Shown here: positions 27,165-37,775 of the stretch, piece by piece
Numbering within the stretch: position 1 is the first letter of the stretch
Layout: each line of letters opens with the position of its first letter
Assembly: GCA_027604705.1 (NCBI GenBank)
Contig: JADHYV010000001.1
Location: 186,001 to 250,000 of the forward strand
Origin: Allomyces arbusculus
Taxonomy: Eukaryota; Blastocladiomycota; Blastocladiomycetes; Blastocladiales; Blastocladiaceae
Direction: 5' to 3'
DNA: 64,000 bases
Program-made: the position numbers and the translations under genes
The notes under the pieces: generated by a model
Seen by the model: the letters and a program-made list of their open reading frames with translations, nothing else
Databases searched by the model: none
Told to the model about the DNA's origin: nothing

Positions 27165-28743
27165 TCAGACAGAAATGCCGCCAAACGCTTTGGTGTGCAC
27201 GACTGACGCCCCGCCCGCATCAAATTCATCGCGCAGCACAAAGCTCTTGGTGTCCGGGAACATGAGCTAGAAGCAGGAAACAAGCAAGCCATCGGTCAGC
27301 CTGCCCGCGTCACGCCAGCGTGCCTAATCACAACGCACCTTGGCCAGCAGTGACCCGCCGAGGTACGCGGCCCATTCCGCGTGGTCCTGGTAGGCCTCCA
27401 GGTATTCGGGCAACCCTCGGAACGTGACTTCGCGCGGTTGATACTCGCCGGCGCGCGTCGACACAGGCAAGTACTGCTGCGCGTACTCAAGCTGCACGCG
27501 CTCCTTGAGGTTGGCGATCAGAGCGCCACCACCGCCCGTTAAAAGCACCGCGTCCAAGACGCTCGCGCGCGCCGAGGGCTCGACGGCAGCGACGGCAGCG
27601 GCCATTGCGTCGACGAGCGATTTTGGTGCACCGGTGAACAGAACATCGTCGACGGCCTGGCGGCGCAGAATCGGGTCGACCTTAGCCGCAACGCTGGCGT
27701 GGTTCGGGCCAGACTCAGCGGGTGACGACGGTAGGCTCGTTTGGTCGTCGGCCGACGACGATGCACCCACCGAGTTGGACGACGCCGTGAGCTCGGCAAG
27801 GAGCGAGCCGGTCGTAGGTGGTCCGGCCTTTTTGCTTGCCGCTACTGTCGACGGTGCCGTCAGCGGGGCGGATGGCGGTGTCGCGTCAAAAAGCTTGCCG
27901 TTCAAGGCGGCAAGCGCGACGGCCGCGTCAACGTTCAGTTCCGGCTGCTTGCTCGCACACAAGGCCTGGAGCCGCGCAATCATGTCGCTGGTCCCGACAG
28001 GCACGATTTGGGCGGCATGGCGAATCGCATTAGTCTCGACGATTGGGGTCACGGCTAGGCGACGACGCAAGTCGTGAGCAAATGATCCGCGCCCTAAATG
28101 GATCTCTCTGACAATGAATATGCGTACTGGTCGTGGTGAATCCAATGTCCACCACCAGACCCGTTACGGCGTTGGCTCCCAAGAGCGCAGCGACGGGTTC
28201 GGGCGCGAGGGCGAGACCTGGGATGCGGTATGTCTCAAACAAAAACTTGGCCGCACGCTCGACGTCCGATTTTTTCCAGGCCATTGGCACGAGCAAAAAA
28301 ATCGGGTGGTCACCCTGTGCCTTGGAAATGCCGAGATGTTCCGTAAGTACCGATGACCTGCGAGGTCGCGCACAAGTTGGTCAGCGGTCGGTTCAGTGCT
28401 CAATCAGTAGGTTGGCAAAAATAAAGACCGACCAGTGCTGGCCAAGAGCGTCCCAGTCTTGAACAAGCCCTCGATCGATTGGTGCTGGCCGGTCCTCGCT
28501 CCGGTCAAACGGATATTTCTGGGATCAATGCCGATGTCAAGGCTGGGATCAGGGCGTGGTCCCATGGTCTGAACTTTGCGGGGGACCTGGTTCATGTCGC
28601 GAACAGCAGATCACTGTCGAAATCATGGTTGGTCGGTGCTGGTCTACCTTGCATTTGGGTTCGAGCGCGCTGGTTGGGCCGGCGAGCGTGCCCGCCGAGC
28701 CAGGCGAGAGGAAGACGTAGCGCTCCTCCTTGTTCAGCGCCAT
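27165..28743 (-). CDS. ARP10: Actin-related protein 10, dynactin pointed-end subunit
   Basis: Arp10/Arp11 caps the pointed end of the dynactin mini-filament and links dynein to cargo. Best model, five exons: 28743-28648, 28518-28400, 28357-28128, 28093-27339, 27266-27165, giving 433 aa (human ACTR10 417). Actin-fold blocks run in order: KYPFDRSEDRPAPIDRGLVQ then DWDALGQHW, HPIFLLVPMAW, KFLFETYRIPGLALAPEPVA, GLVVDIGFTTT, LGRGSFAHDL, AVLLTGGGGALIANL and AAYLGGSLLAK. Introns 1 and 4 are ordinary (129 and 72 nt). Intron 2 would be only 42 nt with a GC donor, and intron 3 only 34 nt. Around each, the reading frame must change, so either these are unusually short introns or small frame-shifting indels are present. 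A Ser/Thr-rich insert of about 60 residues lies in the middle of exon 4. Confidence 0.8.
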
Positions 28744-29276: not shown

Positions 29277-32200
29277 ATGGTTTGTTATTGTCACCGGCAT
29301 TTTTTCATGGGGCAGGATCAAGTGAAGTGGTTGCTGACCGCACCAACATGACGGTTTGCTTCGTCTCCAGTCCGTCCAGCTGCAACTGTCACCCGCCGAG
29401 GTGGTCGATCACATTCGCCCTGCACTTACGCGCGTGCGCAGCGACCCGACCAAGAAATCCGTCTACCTGCCCGTATTTGCGACACTGTCGGCCGACCTCC
29501 TCACGCCCGTCACGGCCTACCTCAAGGTCGCGCACCACGCCGACTACTCGTTCCTGCTCGAGTCGGTGCAGGGCGGTGAAAAGCTGGGGCGATACTCGTT
29601 TATTGGCGCCAACCCGTACGAAATTTTGATTACGGGCGACGGCCCGGCGTATCGCGTGCACGGAGACCCGCTGATCCCGCTCGAGCGCGAGCTGAGCGAA
29701 GTCGAGTTTGTGCCGGTGCCCAACTTGCCGAGTTTTACGGGTACGCTTGTTTGTGATGCTCGCCGTGCTCTACTGTCTCCACCCAGTGTGCCGACCGTCT
29801 CGAACAACGTGACTAGGCGGCGCCGTCGGCTTTGTCACGTTCGACTGCATCCAGTACTTTGAGCCAAGGACGCGCCGCGACCTCGAGGACCAGCTGGGCT
29901 TGCCCGAGGCCGTGTTCCTGTTCTGCGACTCGCTCGTTGTCTTTGACCACCTACACCATGTCATCAAGGTCGTCACGCACATCAAGGTCCCGGCCGCCGA
30001 CGTGCCCGACGCGCAGCTCGAAGCGTACATTGAACTCAAGCACGCCGACGCGCGAGCGCGGCTTGGCCACCTGGTCGCGACCCTCACACGCGACTTTGTC
30101 CCATTGCCGCCGCAGCCGCCTATCCCGCCGCGTCACGCGCGCGCCGAGCCCGTGTCGAATGTCGGCAAGGACGGGTACATGAGTTTTGTCAAGTCGCTGC
30201 AGCACCACATTGTCGAGGGCGACATTTTCCAAGCCGTGCCGTCGCAACGCGTGGCCCGCCCAACGGCACTGCACCCGTTCAACGCTTACCGGCAGCTGCG
30301 GTCCTTCAACCCGTCGCCCTACATGTTCTACCTGCACATGAAGGACTTCCAAATTGTCGGCGCGTCGCCCGAGATGCTGGCCAAGGTGGACGACCGCAAG
30401 GTCTACACGCACCCGATTGCCGGGACGCGGCGCCGCGGGCGGTCGGCCGAGGAAGACGATGCGTTGGCCAAGGACTTGCTCAGCGACGAAAAGGAGCGTG
30501 CCGAGCACATTATGCTCGTGGACTTGGGCCGCAACGACGTGAACCGTATTTGCGATCCGGCGACGGTGCAAGTCGAGTCGCTCATGCACATTGAAAAGTA
30601 TTCGCACGTCATGCATATTGTCTCGGTCGTCTCGGGCCAGCTGCGCCCGGAACAGAACCAGTTTACGGCGTTCCGGTCGATTTTCCCGGCGGGCACCGTG
30701 TCTGGGTCGCCCAAGGTCAAGGCAATTGAACTGATTCGCGACCTCGAAAAGACCAAGCGCGGCATTTATGCGGGTGCTGTGGGCCACTTTGATTACTCGG
30801 GTGGCATGGACACGTGCATTGCGATCCGCACCATGGTCTTCAAGGACGGGTGCGCCTACCTGCAGGCCGGCGGTGGGATCGTCTATGACTCGAATCAAGA
30901 GGACGAGTACGTTGAGACGATCAACAAGATGAAGTCGTCGATCACGGCGCTCGAACGTGCTGAAGACTACTACTTTGACCTGCAGCAGCAAGGGTCGGCG
31001 CTCGTCGGGCCCATGGCCGTGACCAATGGCAGCGGCAGCGCCGACGCCAACGCCAAGGCGCCTGCACCCGTCGTCAAGACCTACACGAACCTGCCGACGC
31101 TGCAGTCGGCCAATGCTATTTACAATTTGACGCCCGCCAAGTGGACCGACGTGACGCTGCTCATCGACAACTACGACTCGTTTGTGTTCAACGTCTATCA
31201 GTACCTGTGCCAGGAGGGCGCCAACGTCGTCGTCTATCGCAACGACCAGGTCACACTCGACGAGATCAAGAAGTTGAATCTCAAGAACATTGTCATTTCG
31301 CCCGGTCCGGGCCACCCGGCCGATTCGGGCATTTCACTTGCCGTCATCAAGGAATTTGCTGGCAAATTGCCAATTCTCGGCGTGTGCCTCGGCGAGCAGG
31401 CCATGTTCCATCTTTACGGCGGCACCGTCACGTACGCTGGCAGTATCGTGCACGGCAAGACGTCGACCATCACGCACGATGGCAAGGGCCTCTACGCGGA
31501 TCTGCCGCAGAACTTCGCTGTGACGCGGTACCACTCGCTCGCGGGCGACAAGGCGACGCTGCCGGACTGCCTTGAAGTCACGTCGTGGACCGCCGACGGG
31601 CTCGTCATGGGCGTGCGCCACAAGGAGTTTACCGTTGAGGGCGTGCAGTACCACCCAGAGTCGGTCATGTCACAGCATGGCCACGCCATGATCCGCAACT
31701 TTATGCAGATGCGCGGCGGCAAGTGGAGTGAGCAGGACGCACGCATCACGCGCGGGATCGTGCCGTCGTCGCCCGACGTGGCTGAGGCCGCGACGTCGCG
31801 CGCCCTGCCGGCGGCAGAAGCGGCGGTGTCGGATGCCATGGACGTGGACCAGGCGCCGAAACCGAATGGCGCCGTGTCGGCCAAGCCCAAGCCCAAGGAA
31901 ACGATTCTTGAGCGTATTTACCGCCAACGGCGCCTGGACGTTGCCGCCGCGCAGCAGCGTCCCGGGCAGTCGCTCGCGCAACTGCGTCAGCTCGTGGCTG
32001 TGGGCGCTGCGGCGAGCCCCGTCTCGTTTTACGACCGGCTGCGGAACCCGCCGCACGCGCCGGCCGTCATGGCTGAAGTCAAGCGTGCGAGTCCTTCCAA
32101 GGGCCTCATCGACGGTACGGCCAATGCGCCGCTGCAGGCGCTCGAGTACGCGCGTGCGGGCGCGTCGGTTATTTCGGTGCTCACGGAGCCGACGTGGTTC

Positions 32201-33526
32201 AAGGGCGACCTGGCCGACTTGCAGGGTGTGCACAATGCGCTTTTGACGCAAATGGGCGACCAGCGGCCCGCAGTCCTGCGCAAGGACTTTGTATTTGACG
32301 AGTACCAGATTCTTGAGGCGCGACTCGCGGGTGCCGATGCGGTGCTGCTGATTGTGGCCATGCTCACGGACGCGGAACTGCGGCAGCTGATCACCATCAC
32401 GCGCGTACTCGGTATGGAGCCGCTGGTCGAGGTCAACAGCAAGGACGAAATGTCACGCGCGCTTCAGCTCGGTGCGCGAGTCGTCGGTATCAACAACCGC
32501 AATCTGCACACGTTTGATGTGGACATGGCCACGACCACGACTGTCGCGCAGGGCGTGCCCAAGGACGTGATTGTCTGTGCGCTCAGCGGGATCTGGGGCC
32601 GCAAGGACGTGGAACCGTACTTGGCCGGTGGTGTCCAGGCCGTGCTTGTCGGGGAGGCCCTGATGCGGTCAAGCGACAAGCGCGCATTCGTACGCGACCT
32701 GTGGGGCCTGCCGGCGGTCCATGTCCCGGCGAGCCCGCGCCCGCTCACGTTCCCGCTCGTCAAAATCTGTGGTGTACGCACAGTTGAGCATGCCGTCGCA
32801 GCCGCGCGTGCAGGTGCTGATTTCGTCGGCATCATCCAAGTGCCGGGCACCAAGCGGTACGTGGATATCGCCACGACGCGGTCGATCGTGCAGGCACTTC
32901 ACCCGAACCCGCCAACCCTTCCGCCCGTCCCGCGCCGTGCTGATCTTGTGGCTGCTGCCGCGGGCGCGACCAATGCCGAGACGGACGCAGCGGCATCGCC
33001 AAGCACCTGGGCGCGCGTCGCATCCGAGGCACTTGCGGGCCTGCTTGCCGCCAAGCGCCCGCTGGTCGTGGGTGTCTTCCAGAACCAGCCGCTCGTCGAG
33101 ATCGCGCGCGTCGTCCGCGAGACTGGAATCGACGTTGTGCAACTGCATGGCGACGAACCCGTCGAGTACGCTACCTACCTGCCCGTGCCCGTGATCAAGG
33201 TCACGCGCGTCGATACCAGCAAGCCTGCGGCGGTGCGTGACGGGCCGCATCATCTCGCGCTGCTCGATTCGGCGCACGGTGGCAGTGGAAAGACGTTCGA
33301 TTGGACTGTGGTCCCGTCGCTCGTCGCGCATGGCGAGGGGTCGCCCGCGAGTGAGCGGCTGCCGTTCCTCTTGGCAGGTGGACTCAATGTCAATAATGTG
33401 CAGCGCGCGATTGCCGCGACGCGGCCGTTTGGCGTGGATGTGAGCAGCGGGATCGAGGTGGACGGCGTCAAGTCGGTCGAGTTGATCACGCAATTTGTGG
33501 ACCGCGCGAAGCGTAGTGAAATGTAG
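29277..33526 (+). CDS. Tetrafunctional tryptophan enzyme TrpE-TrpG-TrpC-TrpF
   Basis: One reading frame carries anthranilate synthase I and II, indole-glycerol-phosphate synthase and phosphoribosylanthranilate isomerase. Exons: 29277-29279 (ATG only, tentative), 29371-29740, 29817-33526; 1360 aa. TrpE (about 2-510) has the Trp-feedback LLES in FLLESVQGGEKLGRYSF, then GDIFQAVPSQR, PIAGTRRRG, LVDLGRNDVNRI and GTVSGSPKVKA. A roughly 55-residue Ala/Thr-rich linker precedes TrpG (about 568-760), with nucleophile motif GVCLGEQ and HPES. TrpC (about 820-1090) shows EVKRASPSKG, LRKDFVFDEYQILEA and INNRNL. TrpF (about 1103-1360) shows VKICGVRT, VVQLHGDEP and LLDSAHGGSGKTFDW. All catalytic signatures are intact. 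Fungi usually fuse only G-C-F and keep TrpE separate. No stop or splice signal interrupts the 3.7 kb exon joining E to G. The first exon is uncertain: ATG at 29277 or 29314 both have usable donors. Confidence 0.93.
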
Positions 33527-35958: not shown

Positions 35959-37775
35959 CTACCCACGACGCTTGAACATCGCCTCAACGCCGACCATCTG
36001 CATCAACCCGCCGCGCGTCGTGCGCGGCATTCCCTTCATCGCCTCCGCGTCCCCGACGATCGTCCACTCGTACCGCGCGAGCAACAAGGCCAGGACGACG
36101 CGCTGCTCCATTACCGAGAACGACTGTCCAAGGCACACGCGTTGGCCCGCACTGAACGGCACCCACTTGAAACCGTGCGCGCCCGCGTGCATCTTGTCAG
36201 CATCCACTTCCAGGAATCGTTCGGGTCGGAATTCGTCGGCGTCGTCGCCCCACAGCGCGGGAGATCGGTGCAGCGCCATGGTCGACGCAACGACGCGGGT
36301 CCCCGGCGGTAGCACCGTGCCGTCCTGCAGTGTCACGGTCGTCGTCGTGACGCGCGGCGGGATGCTTGGGATGCTCGGGTACAGACGGAGAGATTCCTTG
36401 ATGACAGCGGTCACGTACGGCAAGAGCGTCACCTGCTCGTTGGTGAGGTACGGGAACGTGTTGGCGGAGCACATGGGGTGGACGTCATCGAGGACAGAAA
36501 GAACCTCGGCACGCGCACGTTCTTGGAACTCAGGGTGCCGGCCGAGGAAGTAGATGGCGGCGGTGAGGGCGTTGCTCGTCGTATCGTGGCCCTACAACAA
36601 CGAATGAGCGGGAAGGGTCAGACATCGCATCGCGAATCAATGAGCTTAAATGAAGCCGTACCCCGACAAAGAAAATGACCGTGTCGCTGCGCAAATCCTC
36701 GCGCGTGTACTCTGTATCTCCATCGGCCGCCTCGACCATGAAATCCAACAGATCCATATCCTGCTCGTTCGCGACGAGTCCCGCAGCTTTGCGCGCCTTG
36801 AGTGCCGCCAATTTCCGGTCGACGAGGTCGAGAATAAACGCGTTGAACTTGTTCATTTGGCGTTGGAGCCGCTTGTACATGGGCGTCCACTGCACAAACG
36901 TCAGGTCGAGCGCAATAGCAGGGCTAAGAGCGGCCTCCATCATGGTCTCGAAATCGTTAAAGAGCGTCGAGTCCGGGTCGGTTAGGCCGTTAAATGACTG
37001 GCCAAACGCGCCAAGCGCAATCGCATCCAAGGTGAGCCGGCGCATCCAATGATCGACCACGACGGGGCTGCCGCGCGCTGCTGCGTCGTCGAGATGCACG
37101 AGCAGCTGCCGCCCGAGATTGCCAAAGAGCTTCGTCGACCACCCGCGCCTAAACGCTGGGTTCACGACCTTGCGATGATGCTTCCACTCGCGCATCTACA
37201 TGTAAGTCGATTGAAAGTATCAGCGCGCGAACCACCGCGGCCCTCGTCGTGAACACCAGTAAACGTACCGGCGAGAAGACAATATTGGTCTTCCCGAGGA
37301 GCTCGGGAAGCGGCGAGAAGACAGGCTTGTCGAATGCATCGAGTTGCGTCACGATCGCACGCACGTCAGCCGGATTGGCCACGACCACCGACCAATCGCC
37401 AAACACCCATGACGCCCACACCGGCGGCACGGCTGCATCTTTGCCGGAAAGCAAAATGCCACGATCGCGTGCGTTCTGAACGGCATCCACAATTTGCTTT
37501 TGCAGGGCCGTTACGAGATCCGTCGACTGCGTGAGCGAACGCAGTGACTGCCACGCCGTGACGCGCGGTAGATGCCGCATCGCGGGCGGTACGCAAATGA
37601 CCGACCAGTAGAAGCGCGCGGCAACGTAAATTACAGCGGCGATCAGCGTCGCCGGCGCGGTAGTGCGCGCGATCCAAGACCAGGGCGCATTGGCGACGTA
37701 GCGGGTGATGATGTTGCTGACGGCGAAAGCGCGGTGTGACGTGGCGAGAAGGCTCGTCGTCATTGTTGTTGACAT
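35959..37775 (-). CDS. Cytochrome P450, tandem copy A
   Basis: Heme-thiolate monooxygenase, presumed ER-anchored. Exons 37775-37269, 37195-36662 and 36591-35959 encode 557 aa; introns are 73 and 70 nt. An N-terminal hydrophobic anchor (APATLIAAVIYVAARFYWSV) leads into a proline-rich hinge. The C helix is WKHHRKVVNPAF. The I-helix motif GHDTTSNALTAAIYF starts exactly at exon 3. The K-helix ExxR is KESLRLYP, followed by a PERF-type DEFRPERFLE. The heme loop is FSAGQRVCLGQSF with the Cys ligand. Introns, exon lengths and most of the sequence match the P450 at 38520-40323, so the pair arose by tandem duplication. The substrate and CYP family cannot be assigned from sequence alone. Confidence 0.93.

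What the first reader, a model, noticed from the sequence alone, without database searches (positions are those of the whole stretch)
29277..33526. Four tryptophan enzymes fused in one polypeptide (TrpE-TrpG-TrpC-TrpF)
The sequence shows an unbroken 3.7 kb exon running from the TrpE active-site region through TrpG, TrpC and TrpF, with all catalytic signatures. Fungi are known for a G-C-F fusion with TrpE encoded elsewhere; TrpE-G fusions are known mainly in bacteria. Joining both anthranilate synthase halves to the next enzymes would fix their stoichiometry and may allow channelling from chorismate to indole-glycerol phosphate. I do not know this arrangement as a described fungal enzyme. The linker of about 55 residues between E and G looks like a genuine interdomain spacer, not intergenic DNA.
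Basis: partly seen in the sequence, partly recalled or inferred. Interest (0 to 1): 0.82.

Follow-up and report, generated by a model that had tools for sequence, protein, structure and literature searches.

The report
Four tryptophan enzymes in one protein
In the aquatic fungus Allomyces one gene encodes four enzymes of tryptophan synthesis as a single long protein, one enzyme more than the textbook fungal fusion; it is real and shared by close relatives, but the enzyme for the second step is still made separately.

Summary
Confirmed. Window 29277-33526 (+) holds one gene with two small introns and a 1360-residue product ordered TrpE-TrpG-TrpC-TrpF. A public Allomyces arbusculus protein is identical. 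No other trpE, trpG, trpC or trpF was found in the assembly; the only other chorismate-binding gene is PabA-PabB-like. The E-G spacer has coding-type codon bias and a motif shared by Allomyces, Blastocladiella, Sorochytrium and Catenaria, so it is translated spacer, not intergenic DNA. The TrpE part is fungal, not bacterial (AU p 0.008).

The same order is listed for Blastocladiella, Sorochytrium, Synchytrium, some other chytrids (several of which may be merged gene models) and environmental proteins. Unnamed proteins carry longer versions: E-G-D-C-F-B, E-G-C-F-D.

A channel from chorismate to indole-glycerol phosphate within this chain is not supported: step 2 (TrpD) lies on another contig, head-to-head with a fused TrpA-B. 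The likely role is a fixed 1:1 glutamine-dependent anthranilate synthase tethered to the usual fungal C-F pair. Ten paper searches showed no account of the fungal four-domain protein. New variant of a known kind.

The parts
29277..29279 (+). exon 1 (start codon only) of the trpEGCF gene
   Evidence: splice model gives 1360 aa without internal stop, identical to public protein P0001
29280..29370 (+). intron 1 (GT...AG)
29371..29740 (+). exon 2: N-terminal part of TrpE with the LLES motif (29554-29565) of the tryptophan feedback site (meaning of the motif recalled)
   Evidence: Anth_synt_I_N 44.7 bits; motif place
29741..29816 (+). intron 2 (76 bases, GT...AG)
29817..33526 (+). exon 3: rest of TrpE, TrpG, TrpC, TrpF and the stop codon, unbroken
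29467..30958 (+). TrpE (anthranilate synthase component I) domain, residues 34-505 (interrupted by intron 2)
   Evidence: HMM envelope, coordinates; Chorismate_bind 302.8 bits; aligned with solved TrpE 7bvd and 5cwa
30968..31150 (+). E-G linker, residues 509-569, with the conserved motif SANAIYNL at 31106-31129
   Evidence: GC by codon position .56/.49/.85, like the flanking domains and unlike upstream DNA; motif shared by four named genera
31151..31720 (+). TrpG (glutamine amidotransferase) domain, residues 570-759; GVCLGEQ at 31379-31399, VQYHPES at 31643-31663
   Evidence: GATase 185.6 bits; alignment with solved PabA and TrpG chains
31721..31894 (+). G-C linker, residues 760-817
   Evidence: between the domain envelopes
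31895..32701 (+). TrpC (indole-3-glycerol phosphate synthase) domain, residues 818-1086
   Evidence: IGPS 289.9 bits; AEVKRASPSKG, LRKDF, LVEV, INNRNL, LSGI motifs; alignment with 1pii
32756..33511 (+). TrpF (phosphoribosylanthranilate isomerase) domain, residues 1105-1356; KICG at 32762-32773, LLDSAHGGSG at 33260-33289
   Evidence: PRAI 161.6 bits; alignment with 1pii

Best explanation
The locus is a single nuclear gene of Allomyces arbusculus for a tetrafunctional protein, TrpE-TrpG-TrpC-TrpF. TrpG hydrolyses glutamine and passes ammonia to TrpE, which turns chorismate into anthranilate; TrpE keeps the LLES motif of the tryptophan feedback site, so the first step is probably inhibited by tryptophan. 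Anthranilate then goes to the separate enzyme TrpD, and the product phosphoribosylanthranilate comes back to TrpF and then TrpC at the C-terminal end. The gain is most likely a fixed 1:1 ratio and co-localised assembly of the two anthranilate synthase halves, not a continuous channel. Shown: gene structure, order, absence of second copies in the assembly, motifs, translated linker, fungal origin, same order in relatives. Inferred: enzyme activities, feedback, assembly, absence of processing.
For: Gene model and identity with the deposited protein. Five Pfam models over cut-off. No second trpE, trpG, trpC or trpF found. Linker codon bias and cross-genus motif. Same order in Blastocladiella (two species) and Sorochytrium, which group with Allomyces in the TrpE tree (100/99) and the G-C-F tree (100/99). 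AlphaFold2 model of the E core plus G: mean pLDDT 88, pTM 0.86; confidence falls under 50 in residues 523-539 and lies between 50 and 70 over the rest of most of the linker.
Against: No transcript or peptide of Allomyces was available to me. The A. macrogynus model (P0002, 968 aa) starts in mid-TrpE and the Catenaria model (P0018) starts inside the linker, so two close relatives are not annotated as full fusions. Paraphysoderma has separate E (P0140) and G-C-F (P0021) models. No enzyme assay. The assembly is in 197 contigs and may miss genes.
Confidence: 0.9

Rival explanations
1. Two neighbouring genes, trpE and trpG-C-F, whose models and frames happen to run together.
For: Paraphysoderma and Polychytrium have separate E and G-C-F models on contigs of the same length (571150 and 481823), so close linkage without fusion may exist; the same holds for Cokeromyces (2298495, a long contig), but in other species in both lists that I compared, such as Rhizophlyctis, Zopfochytrium and Radiomyces, the lengths differ. 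In Phlyctochytrium planicorne and Nowakowskiella the linker contains MTT(I/L)LIDNYDSF, the usual start of a separate G-C-F protein, which looks like merged models there.
Against: In Allomyces the frame is open across the spacer, its third-position GC is .85 as in the domains, none of three poly(A)-signal words is in it, and the spacer motif is kept in other genera. The G domain has no start methionine of its own; the one in-frame ATG of the spacer (31013-31015) is valine in A. macrogynus.
Confidence: 0.04
2. The chain is translated whole but cut in the disordered linker into TrpE and G-C-F, so the mature enzymes work like those of other fungi.
For: Residues 523-539 are predicted disordered (pLDDT under 50).
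Against: No cleavage site was looked for by any tool and none is evident; a motif of the linker is conserved across four genera, where the model puts a short helix at residues 556-560 with modest confidence (block mean pLDDT 62).
Confidence: 0.05
3. The E-G part came from a bacterial trpE-G fusion by horizontal transfer and was joined to fungal C-F.
For: E-G fusions exist in bacteria (PMC2395257, passages).
Against: Blastocladiomycota TrpE groups with fungal TrpE, apart from the 10 bacterial TrpE that I took of the 80 fetched; holding it with those bacteria is rejected, p-AU 0.008. The bacterial fused family TIGR01815 scores 358.9 against a cut-off of 739.15 (exon 3 only).
Confidence: 0.01
4. 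The four-domain order is the remnant of an older eukaryotic fusion (E-G-D-C-F-B or E-G-C-F), and the textbook fungal G-C-F plus separate TrpE arose by fission, rather than E being added to G-C-F in Blastocladiomycota.
For: Unnamed proteins with E-G-D-C-F-B or E-G-C-F-D keep the same relative order of E, G, C and F; in the TrpE tree, rooted on bacteria, they branch outside the fungal part. E-G-C-F is also listed for Synchytrium and for P0013, P0014, P0019.
Against: On the TrpE tree, fused-at-the-root needs 19 fissions against 11 separate fusions without loss (9 against 7 after dropping P0127 and four doubtful chytrid rows). Separate TrpE occurs in Lithocolla, Nk52 and Colp12. The G-C-F tree was rooted by me on the long fusions, so it gives no independent test. 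My outgroup is biased: it came from searches with fused queries, so separate protist TrpE were hardly sampled.
Confidence: 0.3

Closest known systems
Fungal trifunctional TrpG-TrpC-TrpF protein (TRP1 type)
   Same: Same C-terminal order G-C-F; this protein's G-C-F part groups with fungal G-C-F
   Different: Here TrpE precedes it in the same chain
TrpE-TrpG fused anthranilate synthase (several bacteria, PMC2395257; Symbiodinium, PMC3942023; passages)
   Same: E before G with a linker
   Different: Continues into C and F; its TrpE is fungal, and exon 3 is below the cut-off of the bacterial fused family TIGR01815
Euglena multifunctional tryptophan-synthesising enzyme (five catalytic domains; cited in PMC2395257, passage)
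   Same: Several steps of the pathway on one polypeptide of a eukaryote
   Different: Recalled to carry the steps from TrpD on, without anthranilate synthase; not compared by sequence here
PhzE (ADIC synthase, 3r74-3r76)
   Same: Chorismate-enzyme domain and glutaminase domain in one chain, aligned over both parts
   Different: Makes ADIC, not anthranilate; superposition over both domains gives about 30 A rmsd, so the domains are placed differently within one chain
Pentafunctional AROM protein of fungi (recalled)
   Same: Several steps of aromatic synthesis on one fungal polypeptide
   Different: Shikimate pathway, other domains

Membership tests
Fungal trifunctional G-C-F protein | GATase, IGPS and PRAI domains in this order in one chain | tested here: met
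   tree of G+C+F
Fungal trifunctional G-C-F protein | TrpE encoded by a separate gene | tested here: not met
   TrpE is in the same chain and no other trpE was found in the genome
Anthranilate synthase component I (TrpE) | Chorismate_bind and Anth_synt_I_N domains over cut-off | tested here: met
Anthranilate synthase component I (TrpE) | NCBIfam TIGR00564 over its cut-off | tested here: inconclusive
   471 bits against 517.7, but only the exon 3 frame was scanned, without the N-terminal part
Anthranilate synthase component I (TrpE) | Activity with glutamine and chorismate, inhibition by tryptophan | not testable with these tools
   only motifs seen
Bacterial-type fused TrpE-G (TIGR01815, TrpE-clade3) | Score over the family cut-off | tested here: not met
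   358.9 against 739.15 bits, exon 3 frame only
Aminodeoxychorismate synthase, fused PabA-PabB | Glutaminase domain before the chorismate domain | tested here: not met
   Order here is E then G; a gene with the other order is at G000 C2
Euglena-type multifunctional Trp enzyme (definition recalled) | TrpD and tryptophan synthase domains in the chain | tested here: not met
   TrpD and TrpA-B are on contig C75

The most novel reading that the evidence does not exclude
E-G-C-F is a surviving stage of an ancient eukaryotic tryptophan multienzyme whose fuller forms (E-G-D-C-F-B) persist in uncultured eukaryotes; the classical fungal G-C-F protein is then a fission product, and the conserved linker motif docks the E-G unit onto the C-F half.
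Probability: 0.25. Interest if true: 0.7.

Novelty: new variant of a known kind. Interest (0 to 1): 0.5.

Why it matters
Fungal tryptophan genes are a classical case of enzyme fusion. A four-domain form in Blastocladiomycota, beside three-domain forms in many other fungi and six-domain forms in unnamed sequences, makes it testable, with sequences and simple enzymology, whether such fusions grow or break apart. As far as found here, the pathway of this fungus needs three polypeptides (EGCF, D, AB) from two loci. Some public names of these proteins are misleading.

Tried and rejected
Channelling from chorismate to indole-glycerol phosphate within one chain: rejected, because TrpD is elsewhere. 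Bacterial origin of the E-G half: rejected. Second trpE: the C2 gene has the GATase-first order and reads PIKGT and FPPGSMTGAPK, recalled signs of PabB; rejected. Whether E and G pair within or between chains: the model has pTM 0.86 but is a monomer, and the comparison with PhzE only shows that the in-chain placement differs; undecided. Counting gains against fissions did not favour an ancient fusion. P0010: inside Blastocladiomycota in the G-C-F tree, but unresolved among fungi in the TrpE tree, so its kinship is unsure. Papers: ten searches; one search returned none; the listings were cut (20 of 50; 12 of 14; 20 of 155). I read passages only of PMC11528492, PMC3942023, PMC2395257 and PMC4921024, and of the other hits the listing alone; none seen describes a fungal TrpE-G-C-F protein. 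The library lacks most subscription journals.

Samples: one search scored 7992 candidates and listed 120; one search scored 7998 and listed 120. Into the TrpE tree went 31 of the 120 listed hits, 25 fused proteins, and 10 of the 80 bacterial loci. Into the G-C-F tree went 20 of the 94 listed rows without PF00425 and 24 fused proteins; P0127, P0081 and P0095 were left out of it, P0034, P0124 and P0125 out of both, and P0063 and P0074 out of the TrpE tree.
Full report
What is there. The + strand of the window carries a gene from ATG 29277 to the stop at 33526 with introns at 29280-29370 and 29741-29816. The spliced product has 1360 residues and no internal stop. A public protein of Allomyces arbusculus, P0001, is identical over the full length and is named 'bifunctional tryptophan synthase trp1'. 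Pfam places Anth_synt_I_N and Chorismate_bind (TrpE), GATase (TrpG), IGPS (TrpC) and PRAI (TrpF) in that order, each above its cut-off (exons 2 and 3 scanned apart). Allomyces, Blastocladiella, Sorochytrium, Catenaria and Paraphysoderma are Blastocladiomycota, Synchytrium is Chytridiomycota; placements of other genera are recalled.

Are the domains whole. Motifs lie where expected: LLES, NPSPYMF, PIAGTRRRG, FPAGTVSGSPK, QAGGGIVYDS in E; GVCLGEQ and VQYHPES in G; AEVKRASPSKG, LRKDF, LVEV, INNRNL, LSGI in C; KICG and LLDSAHGGSG in F (places). Their catalytic or regulatory meaning is recalled, not tested; alignments with solved chains are (TrpE 7bvd and 5cwa; PabA and TrpG chains; IGPS chains and the TrpCF chain 1pii).

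Is the linker real. The E-G spacer (residues 509-569, 30968-31150) has GC of .56/.49/.85 at the three codon positions; the TrpE part of exon 3 has .64/.39/.82, TrpG .59/.37/.83, the DNA upstream of the gene .59/.63/.60 and downstream .42/.50/.52. In the alignment of seven sequences, five named ones reach across the spacer from E to G (A. arbusculus, A. macrogynus, B. emersonii, B. britannica, Sorochytrium), and the motif SANxIYxL is kept in these and in Catenaria (six of seven); the environmental P0010 lacks it. The one in-frame ATG in the spacer (31013-31015) is not methionine in A. macrogynus, B. emersonii or Sorochytrium. An AlphaFold2 model of residues 126-774 has mean pLDDT 88 and pTM 0.86; residues 523-539 are under 50, and a short helix at 556-560, inside the motif, has a block mean of 62, so its shape is unsure.

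The rest of the pathway. In the 25.9 Mb assembly IGPS and PRAI are each found once, at this gene. Chorismate_bind is found here and at C2, where a GATase piece lies before it and the sequence reads PIKGT and FPPGSMTGAPK, as in PabA-PabB (recalled). Only this TrpG passes the trpG/pabA cut-off, and a search with the whole protein finds this gene and the C2 gene alone. TrpD is at C75:44851-45718 (+) and TrpA at C75:43326-44075 (-), the latter in an 862-residue open frame that also holds the PALP (TrpB-type) domain; the start codons that I presume stand head-to-head with 460 bases between (44099 and 44560). So three polypeptides, EGCF, D and AB, can cover the pathway. Because TrpD, the second step, is separate, the fused activities are steps 1, 3 and 4, and a continuous channel from chorismate to indole-glycerol phosphate cannot lie within this chain alone; a complex with TrpD is not excluded.

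Who else has it. Of the 120 proteins listed, 26 carry the TrpE core domain PF00425: 15 as E-G-C-F or pieces of it (P0001-P0014, P0019), nine with TrpD as well, one E-G (P0081) and one E-G-D (P0095). Named holders of E-G-C-F models are Allomyces, Blastocladiella (two species), Sorochytrium, Thoreauomyces, Borealophlyctis, Phlyctochytrium planicorne, Nowakowskiella and Synchytrium (two species). I distrust some of the chytrid cases: P0008 and P0009 have in the spacer MTT(I/L)LIDNYDSF, which is how separate G-C-F proteins such as P0101 and P0064 begin, and P0007 lacks the start of TrpG. In the TrpE tree P0006 to P0009 each stand beside a close relative with separate TrpE. The database has separate E and G-C-F models in Paraphysoderma (P0140, P0021) and Polychytrium (P0182, P0106), in both cases on contigs of equal length, which suggests neighbouring genes or split models. 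Catenaria's G-C-F model starts within the conserved spacer, and no protein named Catenaria is among the 120 listed hits.

Longer relatives. P0015, P0016, P0017, P0020, P0063, P0074 and P0121 are ordered E-G-D-C-F-B (P0020, P0063 and P0074 lack the start of E), P0026, P0027, P0123 and P0125 E-G-C-F-D (P0125 with part of E), P0095 E-G-D. Their sources give no organism names; that they are eukaryotic is inferred from their place in the trees.

Origin. In the TrpE tree of 66 rows (25 fused, 31 separate eukaryotic, 10 bacterial) four Blastocladiomycota fusions and the separate Paraphysoderma TrpE form one group (100/99) within the fungal part, bacteria apart (99/99); the longer fusions, with P0081, P0095 and the very long branch P0127, form another branch (90/85). 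In the G+C+F tree of 44 rows, which I rooted on the long fusions, the Blastocladiomycota are again together (100/99), with P0010 and Catenaria inside; in the TrpE tree P0010 is unresolved. Keeping Blastocladiomycota TrpE with the bacteria is rejected, p-AU 0.008. Whether E was joined to G-C-F late or was lost from it in other fungi is open: 11 separate gains against 19 fissions from a fused root, or 7 against 9 without P0127 and four doubtful chytrid rows, with an outgroup sampled mainly through fused queries.

How it probably works. TrpG feeds ammonia to TrpE, as in other anthranilate synthases; the fusion fixes their ratio at 1:1 and keeps them on the same chain as TrpF and TrpC. The feedback motif suggests that tryptophan inhibits the first step. 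These are inferences from established enzymology. PhzE has the same two domains in one chain, but superposition over both gives about 30 A rmsd, so I do not claim the same in-chain pairing.

Known or new. A five-domain Euglena protein and bacterial E-G fusions are cited in PMC2395257 (passages); a fused anthranilate synthase in Symbiodinium in PMC3942023 (passages). Ten searches of the open-access library, several with cut listings, showed no account of a fungal E-G-C-F protein. The kind (fused Trp enzymes) is known; the four-domain fungal variant seems undescribed, though its sequence is public.

Noticed in passing
L102 (G000 C75:40500-47500): TrpD (+) and a fused TrpA-TrpB frame (-) stand head-to-head, presumed start codons with 460 bases between: a small divergent tryptophan cluster in Allomyces.
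   Followed up: partly
P0124 (2250 aa, unnamed source): One predicted protein with all seven tryptophan domains in the order E-G-A-F-B-D-C; its E-G part scores best with fused bacterial-type models, below their cut-offs. If real, a whole-pathway enzyme from chorismate to tryptophan.
   Followed up: partly
P0015, P0016, P0017, P0020, P0063, P0074, P0121: Six-domain fusions E-G-D-C-F-B, no TrpA domain found, in unnamed sequences; P0122, from a transcriptome set, carries D-C-F-B.
   Followed up: partly
P0008, P0009, P0007: Chytrid E-G-C-F models that look merged or damaged: the spacer holds the usual start of a separate G-C-F protein, or the start of TrpG is missing.
   Followed up: partly
public names of P0001 and P0004: 'bifunctional tryptophan synthase trp1' and 'ADC synthase' do not fit these four-domain proteins.
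   Followed up: no
window 27327-28145 (-): Frame with a weak actin-family match (30.7 bits, cut-off 27), perhaps an actin-related protein.
   Followed up: no
window 35962-36474 (-): Frame with a cytochrome P450 match, 130 bits.
   Followed up: no
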